Both the position numbers and the translations under genes were made by a program. The notes under the pieces are model-generated. The model was not told where the DNA came from. It was given only the letters and a program-made list of their open reading frames with translations, and did no database searches. Below are positions 13,609-64,000 of a stretch of DNA of 64,000 bases, piece by piece (within the stretch, counting starts at the first letter, position 1; each line of letters opens with the position of its first letter). This stretch comes from Streptomyces sp. NBC_01296 (GTDB lineage: Bacteria > Actinomycetota > Actinomycetes > Streptomycetales > Streptomycetaceae): NCBI RefSeq assembly GCF_035984415.1, contig NZ_CP130720.1:5394001-5458000 (forward strand), written 5' to 3'.

Positions 13609-14860
13609 CCTCGGTGGCGGCGGCGGAGCCGACCGGCTCCGGTGCGCGCTCCATCGTGCGCCAGGCCGGGAAGACCAGCGGCGCGAGCGTGGTCAGCAGA
13701 TAGACGCCGCCGAACAGCAGCAGGGCCGGCGTCGCCCCGAGCCCGTCGACGAGCAGGCCCGCCGCGAGCCCGCCCAGCGGCATGGTCAGCTCGCAGCCCG
13801 CGGTGGTCACGCCCGAGACGCGGCTGCGCAGCTCGTCCGGGACCCTCTCGTACAGCACGGTGGTCAGGATCGGGTTGAGCATGCCCGCACCGAACCCGGA
13901 CAGCGCCATCGTCACCGCGAGCGGCAGCGGGGTGTCGGTGAAGGCGGCCACCGCGTACCGGGGCGCACCGCACAGCAGGAAGGCCGTCGTGTACACGGTC
14001 CGGCGGGAGAACCGCTCGCCCCACACCCCGTAGAGCAGGGCGCCCAGCAGCGCGAAGCCGCCGAAGAGGGACACGAGCAGGCCGACCGCGGCGGCGCCGC
14101 CGAGGGCCTCGCGGCCGTGCACGGGCAGCAGGACCGCGGACCAGCCCTGGTCCAGGCCGTTGGTCATCATCACCATCACGGTGATGCCGGCCAGCAGCCG
14201 CGAGCGGGTGAGGAAGCTCCAGCCCTCGGCCAGTTCGGCCCGGTAGCCGGCGAAGGAGATCTTCCCGGTGGCCCGCTGCGGCTCCGCGGCCGGGACCCCG
14301 CGCAGGAACGCGGTGACCAGCAGCGCCGACACGGCGAAGGTGGCCGCGTCCAGCAGCAGGGCGGACTCGGCCCCGAACACCGCGATCAGTACGCCGGCCA
14401 GCGCGGCCCCGATCATCCGGGCTCCGCGGGAGACGGCGTCGTACAGGCTCGCCGCCCGGGCCACGGTGGTGCCGGCGTGCTCGGCGAGGTCCGGCAGCAG
14501 GACGCCGCGGGCGGTCAGGCCGGGCGTGTGGACGAGGCCCCCGACGGCCATCAGCGCGCACAGCATCCAGAACTCCAGCGCGCCCGCGTAGTGCAGCAGC
14601 GGGATCGCGCCGACCGAGACGGCGCAGATGAGGTCGGAGGCCGCCGAGACCCGGCGGCGGCCGATCCGGTCGATGACGGGGCCGCCGACGAGCGCGGCGA
14701 CGACGACGGGCAGGGTGGCGCAGAAGGCGACGACCCCGGCCCGGCCGGCGCTGCCCGTGGTCTGGAGCACGAACCACGGGACGCCGATCAGGGTGAGTGA
14801 ACTCCCGGCTATCGAAACGGTGTTGGCGGCGAGGACGGCCGCGAACGGGCGACGGCTCAT
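13577..14860 (-). CDS. MFS transporter in an ArsR-controlled operon
   Basis: 427 residues with about 12 transmembrane helices. The motif A-like GGPVIDRIGRRRVSAASD follows helix 2, and a half-repeat (LLYGVWGERFSRRTVY) follows helix 8. The family is the macrolide/enterobactin-exporter-like MFS with short loops. The start overlaps the stop of the small upstream gene by 4 nt (ATGA), so it belongs to an operon arsR-like gene / small gene / transporter. Efflux of a compound sensed by the ArsR-type regulator is the likely job. The 3' end overlaps the S16 protease gene on the other strand. Confidence 0.85.
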   Translation of the reverse strand: MSRRPFAAVLAANTVSIAGSSLTLIGVPWFVLQTTGSAGRAGVVAFCATLPVVVAALVGGPVIDRIGRRRVSAASDLICAVSVGAIPLLHYAGALEFWMLCALMAVGGLVHTPGLTARGVLLPDLAEHAGTTVARAASLYDAVSRGARMIGAALAGVLIAVFGAESALLLDAATFAVSALLVTAFLRGVPAAEPQRATGKISFAGYRAELAEGWSFLTRSRLLAGITVMVMMTNGLDQGWSAVLLPVHGREALGGAAAVGLLVSLFGGFALLGALLYGVWGERFSRRTVYTTAFLLCGAPRYAVAAFTDTPLPLAVTMALSGFGAGMLNPILTTVLYERVPDELRSRVSGVTTAGCELTMPLGGLAAGLLVDGLGATPALLLFGGVYLLTTLAPLVFPAWRTMERAPEPVGSAAATEVSRTEPALPG

Positions 14861-15069
14861 GCGGCGTGCGGGATGCGGGCGTGGAGGTGGGCAGGCTGGA
14901 TCAGCCGGGTCCCGGCGCTGACGAGGGCCTCGCCGAGCAGGTTGCGCAGGGAGGGGGCGGCCGGGGCGGTCTCGCGGGCGAGGTGCCAGGCGGCGGCCGC
15001 GGCGGCGAGTTCGGCGGTACGGGCGGCGTGCGTCTCGGCGTGGATCTCGGCGGGCGGGAAGGCGTGCAC
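14857..15069 (-). CDS. Small hypothetical protein between the ArsR and MFS genes
   Basis: 70 residues starting at GTG 15069 with AAGGAG about 8 nt upstream, overlapping the MFS start (ATGA). It is Ala- and His-rich, begins with MHAFPPAEIHAETHAAR and is predicted helical and soluble. Three His residues near each N- and C-terminal end could bind metal, but this is speculation. The strong ribosome site and tight coupling on both sides make it a real gene. Confidence 0.7.
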   Translation of the reverse strand: MHAFPPAEIHAETHAARTAELAAAAAAWHLARETAPAAPSLRNLLGEALVSAGTRLIQPAHLHARIPHAA

Positions 15070-15130
15070 GGCAGGACTCCTTCTGCGGGAACGGGAGGAA
15101 AGCGGGGGCGAGGCGGGGGCGAGGTTGCGG

Positions 15131-17556
<2,426 letters not shown>

Positions 17557-55331: not shown

Positions 55332-55790
55332 GTGGAGACACTCGAGACGACGGCCGTGGTGCGTCGGCGCATGAGCCGCCAGAAGAGCCGCAACACCGGG
55401 GTCGAGGTTGCCCTGCGCAAGCTGTTGCATGGCTCCGGGCTGCGTTACAGGATTCACCGGCGCCCCGTGAAGGGCGTTCGCCGGGAGGCGGACATCGTGT
55501 TCGGGCCCGCGCGTGTGGCGGTCTTCGTCGACGGTTGCTTTTGGCACGGCTGCCCGGAGCATGCGACCTGGCCTCGGAACAACGCAGACTTCTGGCGGAA
55601 GAAGATCGAAGGCAACCGGAGCCGGGACCTCGACACGGACGCCCGCCTTTCCGATGCCGGCTGGCTTTCCGTGCGGATCTGGGAGCACGACGACCCGGCC
55701 GAGGCGGCGGAGCGGGTCATCGCCACGGTTGCGGAACGTCGTGAGGCGCTCGGTGCCCCTGTGAGAAATGGCCGCAGCGAAGTTATTTGA
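55332..55790 (+). CDS. vsr: Very-short-patch-repair (Vsr) endonuclease
   Basis: 152 residues from GTG 55332; a GACAAT -10-like box lies 8 nt upstream. Vsr features: RRRMSRQKSRNTGVEVALRK (the usual SRNMSxIxxKDTKPE region), catalytic Asp54 in READIVF, and the aromatic VFVDGCFWHGCPEH (metal/intercalating region). It ends with WRKKIEGNRSRDLDTDARLS and the typical WLSVRIWEHD. Vsr nicks at T:G mismatches left by deamination of 5-methylcytosine, so it should serve the cytosine methyltransferase encoded at 59.9-61.2 kb. A restriction role is the alternative in this island. Confidence 0.92.
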   Translation: METLETTAVVRRRMSRQKSRNTGVEVALRKLLHGSGLRYRIHRRPVKGVRREADIVFGPARVAVFVDGCFWHGCPEHATWPRNNADFWRKKIEGNRSRDLDTDARLSDAGWLSVRIWEHDDPAEAAERVIATVAERREALGAPVRNGRSEVI

Positions 55791-55823
55791 CAGAGAGAGA
55801 ATGTCAAATACCGCTGTTAGGCT
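55785..55823 (+). promoter_or_regulatory. Perfect 8-bp palindrome and -10 box upstream of the HTH-ATPase gene
   Basis: ATTTGACA (55785-55792) and TGTCAAAT (55802-55809) form a perfect inverted repeat with a 9-bp spacer (GAGAGAGAA). A -10-like TAGGCT lies at 55818-55823, so the palindrome covers the -35 region of the promoter for the ATPase operon. The first encoded protein begins with an HTH, so it may bind here itself. Confidence 0.65.
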
Positions 55824-55875
55824 GCGCATTGCCGATCGTCTTGCATGGCGGTGACGGGGGAGGGGATCCGTTCGA

Positions 55876-57957
55876 GTGGGCGGTGAGGAGTTCGGGCCTT
55901 GGCTGGCACGTCAGTTGAGTCGGATGGACATATCCCAGGACGAACTGGCCGACCGTGTGGGCCTCACGCGCGCGGCGGTTTCTGCTTGGGTGAACGGCCG
56001 TTCGGAACCCAGGGATGACACGAAACGGCTCCTCGCCGAGGTATTCGGAACGGATGCGGCATCCTTGGAGGCTCGCGTGAGTGACGTCGTCACCACTTTG
56101 CCCCTGCGTTGGCACCACCGACGGGCGCATGCCGACGGCGGCCGCGAGTACGGAAACGCCGCCGCATTCGCCTTCGACGCAGACATGGCGGTCCTCACCC
56201 GCGAGGCCACCCAGAACTCGCTCGACGAACGACTGGACACAGGGGCTCCGGTCCGGGTCGCGTACACGCTCCACGAGCTCACCGGCAGCCGCCTGAAGAA
56301 ATTCCTCGACGCGCTGCACTGGGACGAGCTCCTCCCGCACTACGAGCAGGCTGCGGGCGCGCCGCAGAAGGTGTCCCGCAGCCTCCGCGCGGCGCTGGAC
56401 GACCTAGCGACCGGGGATTCCCTCCTCCTGCTTCGGGTGGACGACTGCAACGCGACCGGCCTCACCGGCCCGGAGTACGCGGACGGCCGCTTCGCGGCAG
56501 TCGTCCGTCGACAGCTGGACAGCCACAAGACATCCGGCAGTCGGGCGGGCGGCTCGTACGGCCTGGGCAAGGCCACCCTGTGGGCGACCAGCCGTTTCGG
56601 TCTCGTTCTGGTCAACTCCACTCTGTCCGAGGCTCACGAGGGTCGGACCGAGCGACGGGTGATCGGTCGACTCGACCTTCCGTGGCACGAGGTCGACGGT
56701 GCCGCCTATGCCGGGCCCGCCTGGTTCGGCGAGCCCGACACCGCCCCGGATCACAGAAACGTGGCCCGTTCGTGGTGGGCCGCCGAAGACACCGTGCGGG
56801 ACCTGCATCTCGAACGCAGCGGCGCCGCCCCAGGCACGTCGTTCCTCATCGTCGGCGCCCATGACGCGTCGGGGGATGCCGAGGATCTTCGCGATATCCA
56901 CGACAAAATCGTCAGGTCCCTGGCGGACGGGTTCTGGGCCGCCATGGTCGGCGGCCGGCGCGCCGGTCCGTTGCTGGAGGCGACCGTGCGGACCCTGAGG
57001 GACGGCCAAGTGGTTGTTCCCGAGGAGCGGGTCGATCCCTTCGCGAGGCACCCCGCCCTGTGTCGGGCGCTCCGGGCGTACCTCGACGAGGAGACGGTCG
57101 ACGCTCTCACCTCCGAGGAACAGGTGGCCGCGGTCGAGGTCCCGATCGTGGTGTCGCCGCGCAAGGGGCAGGTTGGGGAGAAGGGGATCCGGCATGCTGC
57201 GGTGCTGCTGCTGACGCCCGCTGCCGACGGGGACGAGAAGCACAGCCGGGTCGTGTGCATGCGGGGCAACCGCATGACGATCACCGAGCACCGCCCGCGT
57301 GAGCTGCCTCCGGGCTCCATTCCCTTCCAAGCGGTACTCCTCGCCGGATACGCGACCGAGCGGGACGGACAGGACGTTGCTCTCGCCGAGGCGTTCCTCC
57401 GGGCGTCGGAACCGCCGGAACACGATCGATGGGATCGAACCGAAGAGCTCACCTCGCTGTACGTGCGGGGGGCGCTCACGCGGCTGAAGGAGTTTCGGGC
57501 CGAGATCGACAAGGCCGCACGAGGCCTGGTTCAGCGGGAGACGGCTCCGCGTGCGGAGGGCCCGGCGGGTTTGCGGGAACTGCTGCGCCTGGACTACAGC
57601 GGACCCACGCAGCGCCGTTCCGCGCCTTTCCCGATCGTGGACCGGCTCAACGCCACGCTGGAGCCGTCCGGAGCGTGGAGCGTGGCCGTGACGGTGAAGC
57701 TTCCCCATGCCGACGACCCTTGGCTGCTGACGCCGGTCGCGAAGTTCGACGTGCGCTCGGGTGGGAGGCCGGTGGTCGACTGGGCGAGCTTGGCCGCCAC
57801 GGACAACTGCCGCCTCGAGCGCGGCAATCTCGCTGTCGATGCCGGAGTGCGGCGGGCGGTGTTCCACGGTGTCACCGACCCGGCCACACACCCTGTGCGC
57901 GGGGCTTTGGCCCGTCTCGTCATCGAGGTCCAGAAGGCTCGTGGAGGTGTCGCGTGA
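55876..57957 (+). CDS. HTH-fused GHKL ATPase of the MORC/MutL-like (paraMORC) class
   Basis: 693 residues from GTG 55876. Residues ~7-58 are an XRE-type helix-turn-helix (ISQDELADRVGLTRAAVSAW). The GHKL ATPase follows: N-box Glu110-x3-Asn114-x2-Asp117 (REATQNSLDER), the ATP-lid Asp in RVDDCNATGLTG (~188-198) and the Gly-rich AGGSYGLGKATLW (224-236). The C-terminal half is S5-like plus beta-rich (~590-690). Such ATPases were described by Iyer and colleagues in restriction-modification loci with Z1 helicases and Vsr-type nucleases, and are thought to remodel DNA like MutL or MORC. The fused HTH suggests self-regulation or DNA targeting. It overlaps the next gene by 4 nt. Confidence 0.88.
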   Translation: MGGEEFGPWLARQLSRMDISQDELADRVGLTRAAVSAWVNGRSEPRDDTKRLLAEVFGTDAASLEARVSDVVTTLPLRWHHRRAHADGGREYGNAAAFAFDADMAVLTREATQNSLDERLDTGAPVRVAYTLHELTGSRLKKFLDALHWDELLPHYEQAAGAPQKVSRSLRAALDDLATGDSLLLLRVDDCNATGLTGPEYADGRFAAVVRRQLDSHKTSGSRAGGSYGLGKATLWATSRFGLVLVNSTLSEAHEGRTERRVIGRLDLPWHEVDGAAYAGPAWFGEPDTAPDHRNVARSWWAAEDTVRDLHLERSGAAPGTSFLIVGAHDASGDAEDLRDIHDKIVRSLADGFWAAMVGGRRAGPLLEATVRTLRDGQVVVPEERVDPFARHPALCRALRAYLDEETVDALTSEEQVAAVEVPIVVSPRKGQVGEKGIRHAAVLLLTPAADGDEKHSRVVCMRGNRMTITEHRPRELPPGSIPFQAVLLAGYATERDGQDVALAEAFLRASEPPEHDRWDRTEELTSLYVRGALTRLKEFRAEIDKAARGLVQRETAPRAEGPAGLRELLRLDYSGPTQRRSAPFPIVDRLNATLEPSGAWSVAVTVKLPHADDPWLLTPVAKFDVRSGGRPVVDWASLAATDNCRLERGNLAVDAGVRRAVFHGVTDPATHPVRGALARLVIEVQKARGGVA

Positions 57958-58937
57958 CCGTTGCCTTCCCCTACACCGTGCTCTTCGGCGACGTCACCGT
58001 CAGAGTCCTGTCCGTGAGGGTCGACGGCGATGAGCTCCCTTACACGATGATCTCCGCGTCGGACAGGACCGTCGCCCTGCACAGGGCAGGGCGCGAGTCC
58101 TGGGAACGGGCCCGGCTCCGGGTCGCAGTCGACTTTCCGCAGGGCGAGTTGGCCGAGGGTCCCTGGTCGGATGTCGTTTTCCTCGCGGTCCTGTCCGAGA
58201 AGTCCACCAATGCCCGGACGACCGCCGTACTGAGGCGGACGGACGACGGGACCGTCGAGGGCACCGTCGAACTGGCCCGGGCGCGGCACCACGACCGGGT
58301 CACGCTGGCCGTATCCGTGGTCGCGACCGTCGGCGACGTTCCGGGACGTCTGATCGGCTCCGCCAAGGACTCCTGGTACGTCGATCTTCGGGCGTCGGCG
58401 CCGGAGCGGCGTCAGGAGATCGAGATCGTCGAGGCCGACTTCCGTGAGGGTGCCCACGAGTGGCTGCGCGCCTACCAGGACTCGGCCTGGGTCGTCGATA
58501 CGACCGGTGACATGCCCACGATCTACCTGAACACCGGTTCCGTGGAGGGGTTGATGGCGCTCCTCCACAGCCGTGGGGGGATGCCGTCTGAGCGCGCACT
58601 CCGGGACATGACCCACAGCATGATTGCCCAGGACGCCTGGATCGCCATGTTCCACAGCGCGGCGGGCGATCTGGATACGGACGAGGACGGGACGCCGATC
58701 ATGCCGAGCGGCTGGCGGGAGGCCGTTCTGCGGTCCATGCTGCCGGACGTGCTGCCGGGGCAGCAGCCCACCGACGCCCTGCACGAAATTCTGCAGCGCC
58801 GGGAGAAGGGCTACGGCTGGGCGGAGCTTCAGACAAGCGTGCAATTCGCGGCGGGTCGGCGCAGCCGAAACAGCCGGCATCTGACGACCGCGGTCCGCTC
58901 GTTGGGCGCCGCAGGCGAGGCAGGAGAGCCCCGGTGA
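57954..58937 (+). CDS. Uncharacterised beta-rich protein coupled to the GHKL ATPase
   Basis: 327 residues from GTG 57954, overlapping the ATPase stop (GTGA) and the next start (GTGA). The N-terminal ~150 residues alternate strands (FPYTVLFGDVTVRVLSVRVD, TVALHRAGRESWERARLRVA). The C-terminal ~180 are helical: a basic-acidic EIVEADFREGAHEWLRAYQD, then LLHSRGGMPSERALRDMTHS and a basic tail. No PD-(D/E)XK, HNH or ATP motif could be found. It should be a subunit or nuclease partner of the ATPase. It does not match any family I can name. Confidence 0.75.
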   Translation: MTVAFPYTVLFGDVTVRVLSVRVDGDELPYTMISASDRTVALHRAGRESWERARLRVAVDFPQGELAEGPWSDVVFLAVLSEKSTNARTTAVLRRTDDGTVEGTVELARARHHDRVTLAVSVVATVGDVPGRLIGSAKDSWYVDLRASAPERRQEIEIVEADFREGAHEWLRAYQDSAWVVDTTGDMPTIYLNTGSVEGLMALLHSRGGMPSERALRDMTHSMIAQDAWIAMFHSAAGDLDTDEDGTPIMPSGWREAVLRSMLPDVLPGQQPTDALHEILQRREKGYGWAELQTSVQFAAGRRSRNSRHLTTAVRSLGAAGEAGEPR

Positions 58938-59878
58938 GCCGGAGGAACCACGATATTCCGCCGACTCTCGGGTTGCTTCCCGACATGGCGGCTGCCCGGC
59001 ACCTGTCCCTGGTGGTGCAGACCGGGGAACAGAGACCTCCGCAGGTCGCGCTCCGCCGGGCATCGGAGGTGCTCGGAAGCGCCCGACGGTGGCAGGCAGA
59101 GCCCGTGCGAGAGCTGGTCGACAAGGCCATGGAGCGTTTCGACGTGCGGCGAACAGAGGCCGACGGCTGGCTGGCCCCGCGCCTGCACGCGACTTTGCGC
59201 ATGACGCGCGCGGAGGCCGCCGACAGCCGCCTGTGGAACTTCCTCGCGATGGTCGTGGCCCCCGACTACGTGGTCTGGCGCCATCGGGGTGCAGACTCGG
59301 AAGAAGATCGGGGAACAGTGCCGGCGGCTCGCTTCCGAGGAGCGCACTACACGCAGGCGTTCTCGCGTCTGTGGTGGGCGGCGGAGCTGTTCCGCAACGG
59401 TTCCGACTACGGCCCGGTGGAGGGCGTGTGCCGGGTTCAGGACTTCCTCCAGACCACGATGCGCATGGACGTGGTCGACCACAGGCCGACGGCCCAGGCG
59501 ATGGTGAGGGTCATAGAAGGCCGCCTTGCGAAGGGCGCCGCGCGCCCCGGGGATCAGGTCAACGCCCTTTCCGCAGCCGTCAATGCGGCGGGGAGCACCC
59601 TGGTGTACGACGTGTTGGCGCCTGACGAGGCACCGGACACGGATGCCCTGCGGGACTGGATCGACGACTCGGAGGACGCTCCACCGGTGCCCTGGGACAC
59701 CCTGCCCGACGGCCCGGACGACGGACGGGTGCTGAGCCGCTCGATCGACGATCTGATCCCGATTTTCGAGCGGCTCCTCGACGAGGCGCCGCTGCGCGAC
59801 CGGTCGAGGCGGCGGAGTGTCCCGGCGGCGCGCCTTCCCGAAGGAGTGTCGCTGGTGAAGGCGACCGACGGACACTGA
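58934..59878 (+). CDS. DUF6339-like protein of the defence island
   Basis: 314 residues from GTG 58934 (GTGA overlap). Helical; the box LWNFLAMVVAPDYVVWR with ARFRGAHYTQAFSRLWWAAE is the pattern of the DUF6339 family as I remember it, found in actinobacterial defence loci. The central VCRVQDFLQTTMRMDVVDHR continues it. The function is unknown. It ends 18 nt from the convergent methyltransferase stop. Confidence 0.7.
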   Translation: MSRRNHDIPPTLGLLPDMAAARHLSLVVQTGEQRPPQVALRRASEVLGSARRWQAEPVRELVDKAMERFDVRRTEADGWLAPRLHATLRMTRAEAADSRLWNFLAMVVAPDYVVWRHRGADSEEDRGTVPAARFRGAHYTQAFSRLWWAAELFRNGSDYGPVEGVCRVQDFLQTTMRMDVVDHRPTAQAMVRVIEGRLAKGAARPGDQVNALSAAVNAAGSTLVYDVLAPDEAPDTDALRDWIDDSEDAPPVPWDTLPDGPDDGRVLSRSIDDLIPIFERLLDEAPLRDRSRRRSVPAARLPEGVSLVKATDGH

Positions 59879-59896
59879 CTGCCGGGACCCGGAAGA

Positions 59897-61186
59897 TCAG
59901 TCCTGGTCCGCGAGGAATCGGTGGATGGACTCGGCCAGTGCCCGGCCGAGTCCGACGGGCACGGCGTTGCCGATCTGCCGCGCGATGTCCGTCTTCGTCC
60001 CGAACCACTTGAACCTCTCGGGGAAGCCCTGAATCAGCGCCGCCTCGTAGTGCGTGATGGGACGGGGTTCCCGGGGGTGCAAATAGCGCCCCTTCTCCGG
60101 CTTGTAGAACTCGGTGCGAATGGTGACCGAGGGTGAGTTCACTCGAAGACGTCCCATCACATCGCCCGAACCGGAATTGTGATTGTCCCAGCTTTCCGTG
60201 GAAAGATAGTGCTCCTGGCTCTTCAGGCGTCGATATCCGGGATCGGTGGAGAGTACGATTTCGTTCTTTCCGTTGAGTCGGTAGTGGATTCCTCGGAGAT
60301 TCTTTCGATTCCCACCCGGAGGGATCGCCGCGTACCGGGCCCTGGAGAGTTCGACCGGGTTGCGTCCGAAATGGAGATCGGTCGTGAGGTAGTGGCCCGG
60401 TACGCCGTGCGAGAGCGGGGCCTCCCCCTCGCGAGGTTCGCGGAGACCGGTCTCGACCTGAAGCTTTTCGGACCTCTGGAAGATCCCCTTCACCGAAACC
60501 CACCGGGGCTTGCGAGATCCGTCGCCGTCGGGCCGGAAGAGCGCAGCCTGCGCGTCGGCGGCGGCCTCGGACTCGTATCCGTTCTTGTCGTGGGTCGTCT
60601 CGGGGTGGTGGAGCGGCGTCTTGAAGTCCTTGTGCGTGCAGATGACTATGACCCGCTTGCGGGCCTGCGGAACACCGTAATCGGCGGCATTCAGCAGGGC
60701 CGGGATCACGGTGTAGTCGTGCAACGGGTGTCCGGGGGTGTTCGACGCGGCACACAGATCCCGGTACTGGGCGGATTTCAGGAACCGGTCGACGTTCTCG
60801 ATGACGAACAGCTTGGGGTGGACCTTGGAAACGACACGGACGTACTCCTGCCAGAGATCGTTGCGCGGATCGTCGGGATCCTCCTTGCCGAGACCGGAGA
60901 AGCCCTGGCAGGGCGGACCGCCCATGATCACGTCGACCTGCCCCTTGAAGGGCGTGGGATCGAACCGCGCGATGTCGCCGGGGTAGACGTGGGCCCCGCC
61001 GAAGTTGGCCGCGTAGGTCGATGCGGCGGCCGCATCGAACTCGACGGCCGCGACGGAGGTGAACGGATTCTCTCCCACTTCCGGCGCATACGCTCCAAAA
61101 CCGGCAGAAAATCCGCCAGCCCCGGCGAACAGATCCATCACCTTGATCTGTCCGGATTGTGATGTGGGGGGCTGCGTGCTGGTCAT
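59897..61186 (-). CDS. DNA (cytosine-5) methyltransferase, catalytically intact
   Basis: 429 residues from ATG 61186 (a TTG lies 9 nt further upstream). All key m5C motifs are present: I (MDLFAGAGGFSAGF), IV with catalytic Cys93 (GGPPCQGFSGLG), VI (ENVDRF), VIII (PQARKRV) and X (QIGNAVPVGLGRAL). A ~100-residue variable region between VIII and IX should recognise DNA. It is the last gene of the leftward block, 65 nt after the inactive homologue. Its product gives host protection, and its deaminated sites are what the Vsr nuclease repairs. Confidence 0.95.
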   Translation of the reverse strand: MTSTQPPTSQSGQIKVMDLFAGAGGFSAGFGAYAPEVGENPFTSVAAVEFDAAAASTYAANFGGAHVYPGDIARFDPTPFKGQVDVIMGGPPCQGFSGLGKEDPDDPRNDLWQEYVRVVSKVHPKLFVIENVDRFLKSAQYRDLCAASNTPGHPLHDYTVIPALLNAADYGVPQARKRVIVICTHKDFKTPLHHPETTHDKNGYESEAAADAQAALFRPDGDGSRKPRWVSVKGIFQRSEKLQVETGLREPREGEAPLSHGVPGHYLTTDLHFGRNPVELSRARYAAIPPGGNRKNLRGIHYRLNGKNEIVLSTDPGYRRLKSQEHYLSTESWDNHNSGSGDVMGRLRVNSPSVTIRTEFYKPEKGRYLHPREPRPITHYEAALIQGFPERFKWFGTKTDIARQIGNAVPVGLGRALAESIHRFLADQD

Positions 61187-61251
61187 GAGGGCCAAGTGTA
61201 GTCACCGCCAACGGCTGTGATCGTGGGCTCGTCGGAGCTCGGGACGAACAC

Positions 61252-62238
61252 TCAGGCGCGGAGTGCCGCGGCGATCGCCGCTCCCAGGGCGTGCCCGACA
61301 GGCGGAGGTGACGCGTGTCCGATTTGGCGATACCGGGCCGTCTTGCGTCCGGCGAACGTCCAGTCCGCGGGGAACGACTGCAAAATGGCCGCCTGTTCCA
61401 CGGTGAGCGCCGGCATGCCCTTTCGTCCCAGGGCGGGGTCCCACACGAAGGACGCGTCCGGCACGGCGTCGGCCACGGTGCCGCCGTCGATGCCCATGCG
61501 GGCCCATGCCGCCTTCGTTCCCTTCGGGCCGAGGTCGCCACCACCGCGGTTCCACGACCCTCCGACGAGGGTGCGGGCCGGCTCGTTCGCCTGTCGGGCC
61601 CATCGATCGGCCTCCGGCCAGCCGCGGGCCTGCATCGAGGAGCCAAGCGCCTCTCCGACCGTTCGATGGTGCTCCACGGTCGGCGCAGGTTCCAGGAACG
61701 CGTCCAGTGCATCGCCCTTGAACGCGACCATGATTCCCTGGAGGCGAACCTGAGGCACCCCGAAATCGGCGGCGTTGAGCACGAACCACCGGTGCCGGTA
61801 CCCGAGGTGGTCCAGCTCCTCGGCAATGTGATCGCGAAGGGGCTGGTACTCCGGCCTGGTCACCAGGTGCGGAACGTTCTCGAGGAGCACCGCTCGCGGC
61901 TGTACGCCGTGCAGCAGCAGCATGGTCGCCTCGAGCAGTCTGGTCTCGGCGTCACTGTCCCTCCGGTTGACGGAGGCCGTCGCCTTGACCCGGGGGAGCC
62001 CGGCAGACAACAGGTCGACGTCATACGTCTGGGTGTGCTCGCACGGATCGAAGGACAGCAGATCCGTCTCGTGCACGTCCCACTGCGGCCGGTTCAGCCG
62101 CAGTGTCTCGCACGCGACGTCCCGGTTGTCGAGAACGATCACCGGATCGAATCCGGCTCGCTCCAGCCCGAGTGTCAGGCCCCCCGCCCCGGAGCACACG
62201 TCCAGGGAGCGCAAGCGTTCCCCTCCCGACTCGTTCAT
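61252..62238 (-). CDS. DNA cytosine methyltransferase homologue lacking the catalytic cysteine
   Basis: 328 residues. Motif I (LDVCSGAGGLTLGLERAGF) and motif VI (LLENVPHL) are good. Motif IV reads SAGLPRVKATAS where active enzymes have GGxPCxxFS: Cys is replaced by Arg83. Motif VIII is PQVRLQG instead of QxRxR and motif X is QIGHASPPPVGHAL with Asn to His. The frame is intact and codons normal, so it is a maintained pseudo-enzyme, not a decaying gene. SAM binding is probably kept. A regulatory or DNA-targeting partner for the active enzyme downstream is the likely role. Confidence 0.9.
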   Translation of the reverse strand: MNESGGERLRSLDVCSGAGGLTLGLERAGFDPVIVLDNRDVACETLRLNRPQWDVHETDLLSFDPCEHTQTYDVDLLSAGLPRVKATASVNRRDSDAETRLLEATMLLLHGVQPRAVLLENVPHLVTRPEYQPLRDHIAEELDHLGYRHRWFVLNAADFGVPQVRLQGIMVAFKGDALDAFLEPAPTVEHHRTVGEALGSSMQARGWPEADRWARQANEPARTLVGGSWNRGGGDLGPKGTKAAWARMGIDGGTVADAVPDASFVWDPALGRKGMPALTVEQAAILQSFPADWTFAGRKTARYRQIGHASPPPVGHALGAAIAAALRA

Positions 62239-62277
62239 CCCGCCCCCGGTGATCTCCGCCGAACCCCCACGTGGAGA

Positions 62278-64000
62278 TCAACCGTGGTCGATCTCCGTGA
62301 CGTCGATGATCGCATCGGCGGTCGGGGAGATCGTCGTGAATTGGACAACCTGGCCGTTTGCACCGCGGGCGGCGGCAGGTGCCACGAACGAGAAGGCCAA
62401 CACGACCTTGCCCGGATCGATGCGCTCGCCGTCGAACGCATCTCGGTGGAGGCGCTCCACGATCGGATAGAGGACCAGTGCCCCCCTCCGCTCCGCGACC
62501 AGGGACTCCGTTGTCGGGTCACCGGAGTGGCCCGGTGCACCGGCGATGCGGTGCGCCACCCCGCGGTGCTTCTTGTCGCTGATCGCGCCGAAGAGGCCGT
62601 GGCGGTCCCGTCGGCGGTCCCGCTCGAACCAGGAGTACCGACGCCCCTCCGAGCCGAGCCTCAGGGCCTTCCCGTGGGCACCTGCGTGCTGGGGCGCGAG
62701 CACCACCCAGTCCTCGACGAGACCGTTCTTCGTGATCTCCTCGATGTAGCGCAGATGGGGGGAGAAGTGATCAGGATGCTCCCATTCCAGGCGGCCGAGG
62801 ATCGACAGCAGGCCGTCGGCAGCGAGCGTTCCGGTCAGCGCGCGGTAGCGGTGGACCGTGTTCTCCTCCGCGAAGTGGTAGGCGTATGCGCTCGCGTCCC
62901 GGTCGAGGGACTCGAGCACGGGCACCCACAGTTCGGTGTTGCGAACGAGGGACGCCTTCTTCTGCGGGTAGGCCGTCGGCTCCTCCCATCGCCCGGCGGA
63001 TCGCACCAGCTTCAGGCGCGCGTTGTACATTTTGTTGGGGCTCGTCGGCTTCAGCCACGGAAGGTGTTGCGACACCAACGGCGGAACCTGTGCCGGTGTG
63101 ATCTGCGGGTATCCGTCCACCAGCACCGCGTAGCGTTCCAGTTCGCCGCGGAACGACTCCTCGTCCAGGCACAGCGCGTGGAACGCGGCGTACAGGTCGA
63201 TCTCCTTGTCGCCCATGGCCTCGCTGCGTCCCAGGTAGAGACGGACCAGGTCACGGTAGCCGCGCCGGAAGCCGAACCAGCGACCCATCTGCATCAACGA
63301 CGACGCGTTTCCGGCCCGACGCCGGAAGTAGGAGATGGTGAGCCCTTCCACGGTGAAGCCGCGGGCGAGCAGTTGACCGCCGATGAGGATCTTCCAGATC
63401 GGCCGCTTGTCGAAGTCGGCGTCGCCGGTCTCCAGATCCTTGTCACCGTTGACGACGATGACCGGTTTGCCGTCCCTGCCGATGCGCATGGCCGCGACAC
63501 CGACGAAGGGCATCAGCTCCTCGTACGTCTCGGGCACGGCATGGCCGTCTGCGCGTACGGCGGACACCGGCGCGATGTCGGTCTCGAACAGCTTGCGGAG
63601 GCGGCCGTGACCGCGGGGCCCGGTGTACCCGGCATTGTCCCAAAGGCCGAGGATCCTGTCGTGCAGCTCTCTGTGGTCGTTCGTGCGCACGGACTCGTGG
63701 ACCAGCATGGTGTGGTGCTCGAAGTGGCCGTCCTGGAGCCCGTCCACACGTTCCCGGTACAGCTTCACGGCGGCCGTGAGGACGAACATGTCCATGGCCT
63801 CCTGAAGACACGTGTCGTCGTCATCGGCGCCGGCGCCGATGACACGGACGTGCGCCTTCTCGTTGGAGTTGGCGAACGTGGCCTCGCCCGGTTCCAGCGC
63901 GGAGTCCAGGTCGTGGAAGTCACGGGCGCCCATGTACCCGGCCGGGCGCGGCAGAGAGAGGATGAAATCCTTGGGGAAGATGTCCTCAGTGTCGCTCGGA
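62278..64000 (-). CDS. Z1-domain helicase-like protein (N-terminal part outside window)
   Basis: The frame is open to the right edge; ~574 C-terminal residues are visible. The visible part opens SDTEDIFPKDFILSLPRPAGY, then the C-terminal SF2-helicase-like region IGGQLLARGFTVEGLTISYF and the motif VI equivalent LMQMGRWFGFRRGYRDLVRL. This is the arrangement of Z1-domain proteins, which couple an SF2 helicase core to the Z1 domain in paraMORC-type restriction systems. Motif I and II must lie beyond base 64000. It is first in a leftward block with the two methyltransferases (39 and 65 nt gaps). Confidence 0.88.
   Translation of the reverse strand, partial: PSDTEDIFPKDFILSLPRPAGYMGARDFHDLDSALEPGEATFANSNEKAHVRVIGAGADDDDTCLQEAMDMFVLTAAVKLYRERVDGLQDGHFEHHTMLVHESVRTNDHRELHDRILGLWDNAGYTGPRGHGRLRKLFETDIAPVSAVRADGHAVPETYEELMPFVGVAAMRIGRDGKPVIVVNGDKDLETGDADFDKRPIWKILIGGQLLARGFTVEGLTISYFRRRAGNASSLMQMGRWFGFRRGYRDLVRLYLGRSEAMGDKEIDLYAAFHALCLDEESFRGELERYAVLVDGYPQITPAQVPPLVSQHLPWLKPTSPNKMYNARLKLVRSAGRWEEPTAYPQKKASLVRNTELWVPVLESLDRDASAYAYHFAEENTVHRYRALTGTLAADGLLSILGRLEWEHPDHFSPHLRYIEEITKNGLVEDWVVLAPQHAGAHGKALRLGSEGRRYSWFERDRRRDRHGLFGAISDKKHRGVAHRIAGAPGHSGDPTTESLVAERRGALVLYPIVERLHRDAFDGERIDPGKVVLAFSFVAPAAARGANGQVVQFTTISPTADAIIDVTEIDHG

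What the first reader, a model, noticed from the sequence alone, without database searches (positions are those of the whole stretch)
55332..64000. Convergent Vsr / HTH-GHKL ATPase / Z1 helicase / double methyltransferase island: likely unusual DNA-modification defence system
Seven genes form two facing blocks whose stops are 18 bp apart: Vsr, HTH-GHKL ATPase, unknown and DUF6339-like to the right; Z1 protein, dead methyltransferase and live methyltransferase to the left. Iyer and colleagues described GHKL (paraMORC) ATPases with Z1 helicases, Vsr-like nucleases and methylases as restriction-modification systems. The HTH fusion, the paired methyltransferases and the two unknown subunits make this a variant I cannot match to a named system. 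A model: the live methylase marks host DNA, the Z1 helicase and GHKL ATPase detect and remodel unmarked DNA, and one of the unknown proteins or Vsr cuts it.
Basis: partly seen in the sequence, partly recalled or inferred. Interest (0 to 1): 0.92.

Follow-up and report, generated by a model that had tools for sequence, protein, structure and literature searches.

The report
Modular methylation-defence island with dead methyltransferase
This is a bacterial DNA-defence island built from a DNA-marking enzyme, a conserved 'dead' copy of such an enzyme and interchangeable DNA motors; it belongs to a predicted but untested class, and in related bacteria the same core is attached to a different known defence machine (DISARM).

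Summary
In detail: seven intact genes in two convergent blocks, stops 18 bp apart. The window edge hid three facts: Z1 is a full 992-aa protein, followed by a DUF4420 PD-(D/E)XK nuclease with its E-D-ExK motif, and a second GHKL ATPase with the MORC signature. The left block is therefore a MORC/Z1/nuclease/C5-methylase operon of the kind Iyer 2008 described; Miller 2022 predicted it as a defence system, and it resembles MZA. The right block (HTH-paraMORC2, unknown protein, DUF6339; PADLOC candidate PDC-M33) is an inseparable triad in 41 of 41 sampled Streptomycetaceae genomes that carry it. About 200 actinobacterial relatives were found. In most of those mapped, the triad and methylase pair sit beside DISARM DrmA. 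DrmA and DUF4420 are near-exclusive (p=5e-8), with at least 8-10 switches on the tree. A sister operon fuses DUF6339 to the dead methylase, tying both blocks together. The dead methylase is a conserved pseudoenzyme: catalytic Cys in 0 of 79, motif VIII Arg in 0 of 80, dN/dS about 0.1-0.3. Verdict: an R-M-like defence system, new variant of a known kind. Defence activity and the dead methylase's role are inferred, not shown.

The parts
55332..55790 (+). Vsr-type mismatch endonuclease (152 aa); position varies among relatives, so probably an accessory of the C5-MTase
   Evidence: Pfam Vsr 1.1e-18; present in 42/69 full-flank relatives, at different places; D54 and the C69-F-W-H-G-C74 core conserved in 46 sequences
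55876..57957 (+). HTH (Xre-type) fused to GHKL ATPase of the paraMORC2 type, 'GHKL1'
   Evidence: HTH_3 7e-10; N box REATQNSLDE, G1 box, G2 box GGSYGLGKA and C-terminal EPPEH (ExxxH) conserved; PDC-M33A 8e-20
57954..58937 (+). Unknown subunit 'UNK' (327 aa): beta-rich N-terminal part plus helical C-terminal part
   Evidence: No family or PDB hit; AlphaFold pLDDT 89; fold search inconclusive; found in exactly the 41 of 298 genomes that carry GHKL1
58934..59878 (+). DUF6339 protein (314 aa, all-helical)
   Evidence: Pfam DUF6339 2.4e-15; PDC-M33C 5e-11; AlphaFold pLDDT 91, no PDB fold match; fused to the pseudo-MTase in a sister operon
59897..61195 (-). Live C5-cytosine DNA methyltransferase (PPCQ, ENV, QARKR, GNA all present)
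   Evidence: Pfam DNA_methylase 3.6e-62; catalytic Cys in 66/66 counterparts
61252..62238 (-). Pseudo-C5-methyltransferase: catalytic Cys replaced by Arg, motif VIII second Arg and motif X Asn lost; motif I, ENV and target-recognition block kept
   Evidence: catalytic Cys 0/79, motif VIII Arg 0/80 in the clade; dN/dS 0.10-0.30
62278..64000 (-). Z1-domain SF2 ATPase, C-terminal 573 aa (whole protein 992 aa, continues to L002:13256, about 1.26 kb beyond the window; DUF4420 and the MORC ATPase follow at L002:13253-14233 and 14226-15866, minus strand)
   Evidence: Pfam Z1 5e-46; Walker A GYVQSGKT, IIDDESD and QMGRWFGFR conserved; MzaC 2e-62 for the whole protein; PF14390 8e-37 and HATPase_c_3 5e-22 for the two following genes

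Best explanation
One multi-subunit, ATP-driven restriction-modification-like defence system. (1) The live C5-MTase marks host DNA with 5-methylcytosine (catalytic motifs shown, activity inferred). (2) The MORC GHKL ATPase, the Z1 translocase and the DUF4420 nuclease form the effector that tracks along and cuts unmarked DNA (motifs shown, activity inferred from family knowledge). (3) The HTH-paraMORC2 ATPase, UNK, DUF6339 and the pseudo-MTase form a recognition/licensing module: the pseudo-MTase is held to DNA by its retained target-recognition region without modifying it, and DUF6339 couples it to the ATP-driven clamp (physical link supported by the fusion; role inferred). In relatives the same licensing module sits with DISARM DrmA/DrmB instead of MORC-Z1-DUF4420. 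(4) Vsr repairs T:G mismatches left when 5mC deaminates (inferred).
For: Triad GHKL1-UNK-DUF6339 in the 41 family genomes. Pseudo-MTase in 37 of those 41 genomes, against 16-17 of the 257 others; eight of those others that were mapped carry a single co-directional operon Z1-DUF4420-paraMORC-298aa-[DUF6339::pseudo-MTase]-live MTase, which places components of both blocks in one transcription unit. Loss of catalytic residues is complete and the gene is under purifying selection. Intact nuclease and motor motifs. DrmA versus DUF4420 near-exclusive, p=5e-8 before allowing for relatedness, with at least 10 and 8 changes on the GHKL1 tree. DrmB confirmed next to DrmA in four loci tested.
Against: No phage or methylation data. 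14 of 69 loci have both DrmA and a Z1 gene, so the modules are not strictly exclusive. The live MTase changes family (MT1 or MT2) while the pseudo-MTase's target-recognition block stays constant, which fits poorly with the pseudo-MTase reading the live enzyme's own site. Four GHKL1 genomes lack the pseudo-MTase, so it is not always needed. UNK and the 298-aa protein of the sister operon could not be shown to be homologous.
Confidence: 0.55

Rival explanations
1. Two independent neighbouring systems in a defence island: an MZA/Miller-type R-M operon (left) and a separate PDC-M33 candidate system (right).
For: PADLOC names the two blocks as different systems; the left block can occur without the triad (L158); the triad co-evolves tightly within itself and less with the MTases.
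Against: DUF6339 fused to the pseudo-MTase and all components in one operon in the sister loci; the convergent arrangement of triad and MTase pair recurs in dozens of loci from many genera.
Confidence: 0.15
2. The pseudo-MTase is an activator or regulator of the live MTase (as DNMT3L is for DNMT3A), not part of the restriction machinery.
For: Usually next to a live C5-MTase (both present in 53 of 69 full-flank loci); weak but significant covariation with it (partial Mantel 0.21, p=0.001); SAM motif and ENV retained.
Against: The fusion is to DUF6339, not to the live MTase; live partners of two different families pair with it; covariation drops to 0.12 (p=0.035) within one family.
Confidence: 0.22
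3. Modification-dependent (type IV-like) or regulatory system: the HTH-GHKL protein senses foreign modification and the pseudo-MTase binds modified DNA.
For: An HTH, and in 6 of 69 full-flank loci a sigma-70 module, is fused to GHKL1, which suggests transcriptional control.
Against: A live C5-MTase with intact catalytic motifs is nearly always present, as expected for self-marking rather than attack on modified DNA.
Confidence: 0.08

Closest known systems
MORC/paraMORC R-M operons (Iyer, Abhiman & Aravind 2008, PMC2292703)
   Same: MORC with the S5 signature, SF2 helicase with QXuRhFG (Z1), RE-fold nuclease with E-D-ExK, DCM methylase, Vsr; GHKL1 has the paraMORC2 ExxxH motif
   Different: Here a MORC and an HTH-paraMORC2 in two convergent blocks, plus UNK, DUF6339 and a pseudo-MTase; none of these three is mentioned in the sections read
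Putative defence system of Miller et al. 2022 (PMC9523054), Type I
   Same: Core of Z1 protein (~925 aa), PD-(D/E)XK DUF protein and cytosine methyltransferase; six genes; strongly associated with DNA repair endonucleases
   Different: Their three extra genes are not named in the text; convergent layout, extra MORC and the conserved dead methylase are not mentioned there
MZA (MzaABCDE)
   Same: MzaB (GHKL), MzaC (Z1), MzaD (DUF4420) homologues detected by PADLOC models
   Different: No AIPR (MzaE) found and no sigma factor (MzaA) in the window's locus; two C5-MTases
DISARM (DrmA/DrmB)
   Same: Most relatives of the triad and MTase pair sit beside DrmA, with DrmB confirmed in four
   Different: The window's locus has no DrmA/DrmB; DISARM loci of this type add UvrD-like and sacsin-SF2 helicases and the GHKL triad
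PADLOC candidate PDC-M33
   Same: PDC-M33A and PDC-M33C models hit GHKL1 and DUF6339
   Different: Hits partial; no model hit for UNK; a candidate without a published test that I could find

Membership tests
Iyer 2008 MORC / SF2 (Z1) R-M operon | MORC GHKL with GhXhhpXXRhl motif | tested here: met
   GFYFYRHNRLV in the GHKL gene past the window edge (motif)
Iyer 2008 MORC / SF2 (Z1) R-M operon | SF2 helicase with C-terminal DThhQXuRhFG motif | tested here: met
   SLMQMGRWFGFR, Q to FGF conserved in 40 sequences; the leading D-T of the published motif is S-S here
Iyer 2008 MORC / SF2 (Z1) R-M operon | RE-fold nuclease with E-D-ExK | tested here: met
   DUF4420: E145, D174, E183-x-K185 conserved 18/18
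Miller 2022 Type I | Z1 + PD-(D/E)XK DUF protein + cytosine MTase core, repair endonuclease associated | tested here: met
Miller 2022 Type I | The three additional genes are the same as here | not testable with these tools
   Figure 5c and supplementary tables are not held
MZA | MzaB, MzaC, MzaD homologues | tested here: met
   6e-32, 2e-62, 2e-10
MZA | AIPR protein (MzaE) | tested here: not met
   No AIPR hit among the genes of the locus and the neighbours scanned
MZA | Sigma factor (MzaA) | tested here: not met
   GHKL1 of the window carries only an HTH; a sigma fusion exists only in some relatives
DISARM | DrmA helicase and DrmB (DUF1998) at the locus | tested here: not met
   No DrmA at the window's locus; the genome's DrmA lies 3 Mb away. 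DrmA is present in 56/69 relatives
PDC-M33 (PADLOC) | Subunits A and C | tested here: met
   8e-20 and 5e-11, both partial matches
PDC-M33 (PADLOC) | Remaining subunit between A and C | tested here: inconclusive
   UNK lies at that position but hits no PADLOC model
Active C5-MTase (second copy) | PCQ cysteine and motif VIII arginine | tested here: not met
   Cys 0/79, Arg 0/80 in the clade; 8/8 in the live sister clade

The most novel reading that the evidence does not exclude
A portable self/non-self licensing module (HTH-paraMORC2 + UNK + DUF6339 + pseudo-C5-methyltransferase + live C5-methyltransferase) is shared by two otherwise distinct antiphage machines, DISARM (DrmAB) and MORC-Z1-DUF4420, with the dead methylase acting as a non-modifying DNA reader that controls the attached motor.
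Probability: 0.4. Interest if true: 0.8.

Novelty: new variant of a known kind. Interest (0 to 1): 0.62.

Why it matters
How DISARM and MORC/Z1 systems tell self from foreign DNA is open. A constant core that is found with either machine, and that contains a conserved dead methyltransferase, gives a concrete, testable candidate for the shared recognition part, and suggests that systems now named separately (DISARM variants, MZA-like, PDC-M33) are combinations of exchangeable modules.

Tried and rejected
Vsr as the restriction nuclease: rejected as less likely, because its position and presence vary (42/69) while DUF4420 has an intact active site. Dead methylase as a decaying pseudogene: rejected (residue loss shared by the whole clade, dN/dS 0.1-0.3). 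UNK and DUF6339 identity: no PDB sequence hits; fold searches gave only low TM-scores. UNK versus the sister operon's 298-aa protein: hhalign probability 11%, inconclusive. Plasmids: no UNK homologue. A phylum-wide sample found the GHKL1 profile in only 2 of 396 genomes, so it is rare outside the family although present in many other actinobacterial genera. Pseudo-MTase as partner-specific reader: the recognition block does not track the live partner's family. Literature: no paper found on DUF6339 or PDC-M33; the YprA/ARMADA paper has no mention of GHKL or MORC in its text. My first search for Mza gene names returned only unrelated papers.

Full report
What is there. Family searches confirm Vsr, HTH + GHKL, DUF6339, two C5-MTases and Z1; the 327-aa protein has no family hit. 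The window ends inside Z1. The genome (window = G000:C1:5394001-5458000) shows the left block continuing: Z1 is 992 aa, followed by DUF4420 (326 aa) and a second GHKL ATPase (up to 546 aa), then a SEC-C/TPR gene. PADLOC models call these MzaC, MzaD and MzaB.

Active sites. Z1 keeps Walker A (GYVQSGKT), Walker B-like IIDDESD and QMGRWFGFR. The second GHKL has GFYFYRHNRLV, the MORC signature of Iyer 2008 (motif). DUF4420 keeps E, D and ExK in 18/18 sequences. GHKL1 has intact N, G1 and G2 boxes and the C-terminal ExxxH of paraMORC2.

Conservation. GHKL1 occurs full-length in 41 of 298 family genomes and UNK in exactly the same 41. In all 40 relatives examined the triad GHKL1-UNK-DUF6339 is adjacent. 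A scan of one genome for each of 84,980 species found 200 relatives; the best 80 cover Streptomyces, Amycolatopsis, Lentzea, Rhodococcus, Nocardia, Actinomadura, Nonomuraea and others. Of 69 loci with full flanks, UNK is in 69, DUF6339 in 66, the pseudo-MTase in 59, a live MTase in 57, Vsr in 42, DrmA in 56, Z1 in 24 and DUF4420 in 12. Gene calls were made by a simple codon-usage caller of my own, so start sites and small genes are approximate.

Exchange of effectors. The upstream genes of most loci are DrmA (E down to 1e-248), a UvrD-like helicase and a sacsin-like/SF2 helicase; DrmB was confirmed in L148, L166, L167 and L168. DrmA and DUF4420 co-occur in only 2 of 69 loci (Fisher p=5e-8, not corrected for relatedness), and on a GHKL1 tree DISARM presence changes at least 10 times and DUF4420 presence at least 8 times. 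DrmA and Z1 overlap more (14 loci), 12 of them Z1 without DUF4420. The window's nearest relatives (L074, L075, L077) are Z1-type. The strain has a DrmA of its own about 3 Mb away, without the triad.

One system, not two. About 17 family genomes without GHKL1 proper carry the pseudo-MTase. The eight mapped loci of type L154 have one co-directional operon: Z1, DUF4420, a paraMORC homologous to GHKL1 (hhalign 98%, 3e-14), a ~298-aa protein, a DUF6339::pseudo-MTase fusion, and a live MTase. The fusion joins a right-block protein to a left-block protein.

The dead methylase. An alignment of 80 clade members shows Arg (73) or Ser (6) at the catalytic Cys (one gap) and no Arg at the second motif VIII position, while Glu of ENV, Q and the first Arg of motif VIII are almost always kept. 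Eight members of the nearest live clade keep everything, and 66/66 neighbouring live MTases keep the Cys. dN/dS between close pairs is 0.10-0.30, like the live gene. The target-recognition block (VGGS..RGGADLGPTG) stays similar whichever live family is the partner. So it is a conserved pseudoenzyme. What it does is not shown.

Mechanism. Most likely an R-M-like system: live MTase marks self; MORC-Z1-DUF4420 restricts; the triad plus pseudo-MTase licenses the effector; Vsr repairs deaminated 5mC. Only the motifs, the gene associations and the fusion are shown; marking, cutting and licensing are inferred. For DISARM itself, DrmAB is known to be less active on 5mC-methylated DNA (PMC9142583), which fits a shared methylation-based licence but does not show it here. 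The regulator reading of the pseudo-MTase remains a serious rival.

Comparison. The left block is the Iyer 2008 MORC/SF2 R-M type, and its core matches the predicted system of Miller 2022. It is not MZA by definition (no AIPR, no sigma factor), nor DISARM (no DrmA/B at the locus). I found no published description of the shared core between DISARM and Z1 systems or of the conserved dead methylase, but the paper library is partial and supplements were not readable.

Noticed in passing
L054:4019-7633, L148:8519-12133; likewise L057, L061, L064, L068, L069, L143, L146, L151-L153: In some relatives a full sigma-70 module (regions 2, 3, 4) is fused in frame to the N-terminus of the HTH-GHKL ATPase, giving 1100-1220 aa proteins; most of these loci carry a NERD-UvrD gene in place of the sacsin-SF2 gene.
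   Followed up: partly
L113, L122, L137, L139, L142, L144: In six Streptosporangiaceae-type relatives the pseudo-MTase has Ser rather than Arg at the catalytic Cys, so the catalytic residue took two different replacements in the clade.
   Followed up: partly
L079:4837-9600 (one of 53 of 79 loci): A ~1590-aa protein with a sacsin-like GHKL N-terminus (PADLOC TmtA) and a C-terminal SF2 helicase is a regular companion of DrmA in these loci.
   Followed up: partly
L176:12047-19825 (G000:C1 about 2.447-2.455 Mb): The window's genome holds a second, separate DrmA locus, with a 611-aa gene at the usual DrmB position and a gene that by eye resembles a protein kinase nearby, without the triad.
   Followed up: partly
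L002:15867-19847: A SEC-C/TPR gene, a sortase, a 60KD_IMP-type membrane protein and an FAA hydrolase flank the island; the same genes flank many relatives, suggesting a defence-island hotspot.
   Followed up: no
L119 versus L121: Two loci with 96% identical GHKL1 have pseudo-MTases only 61% identical, suggesting exchange of the methylase block.
   Followed up: no
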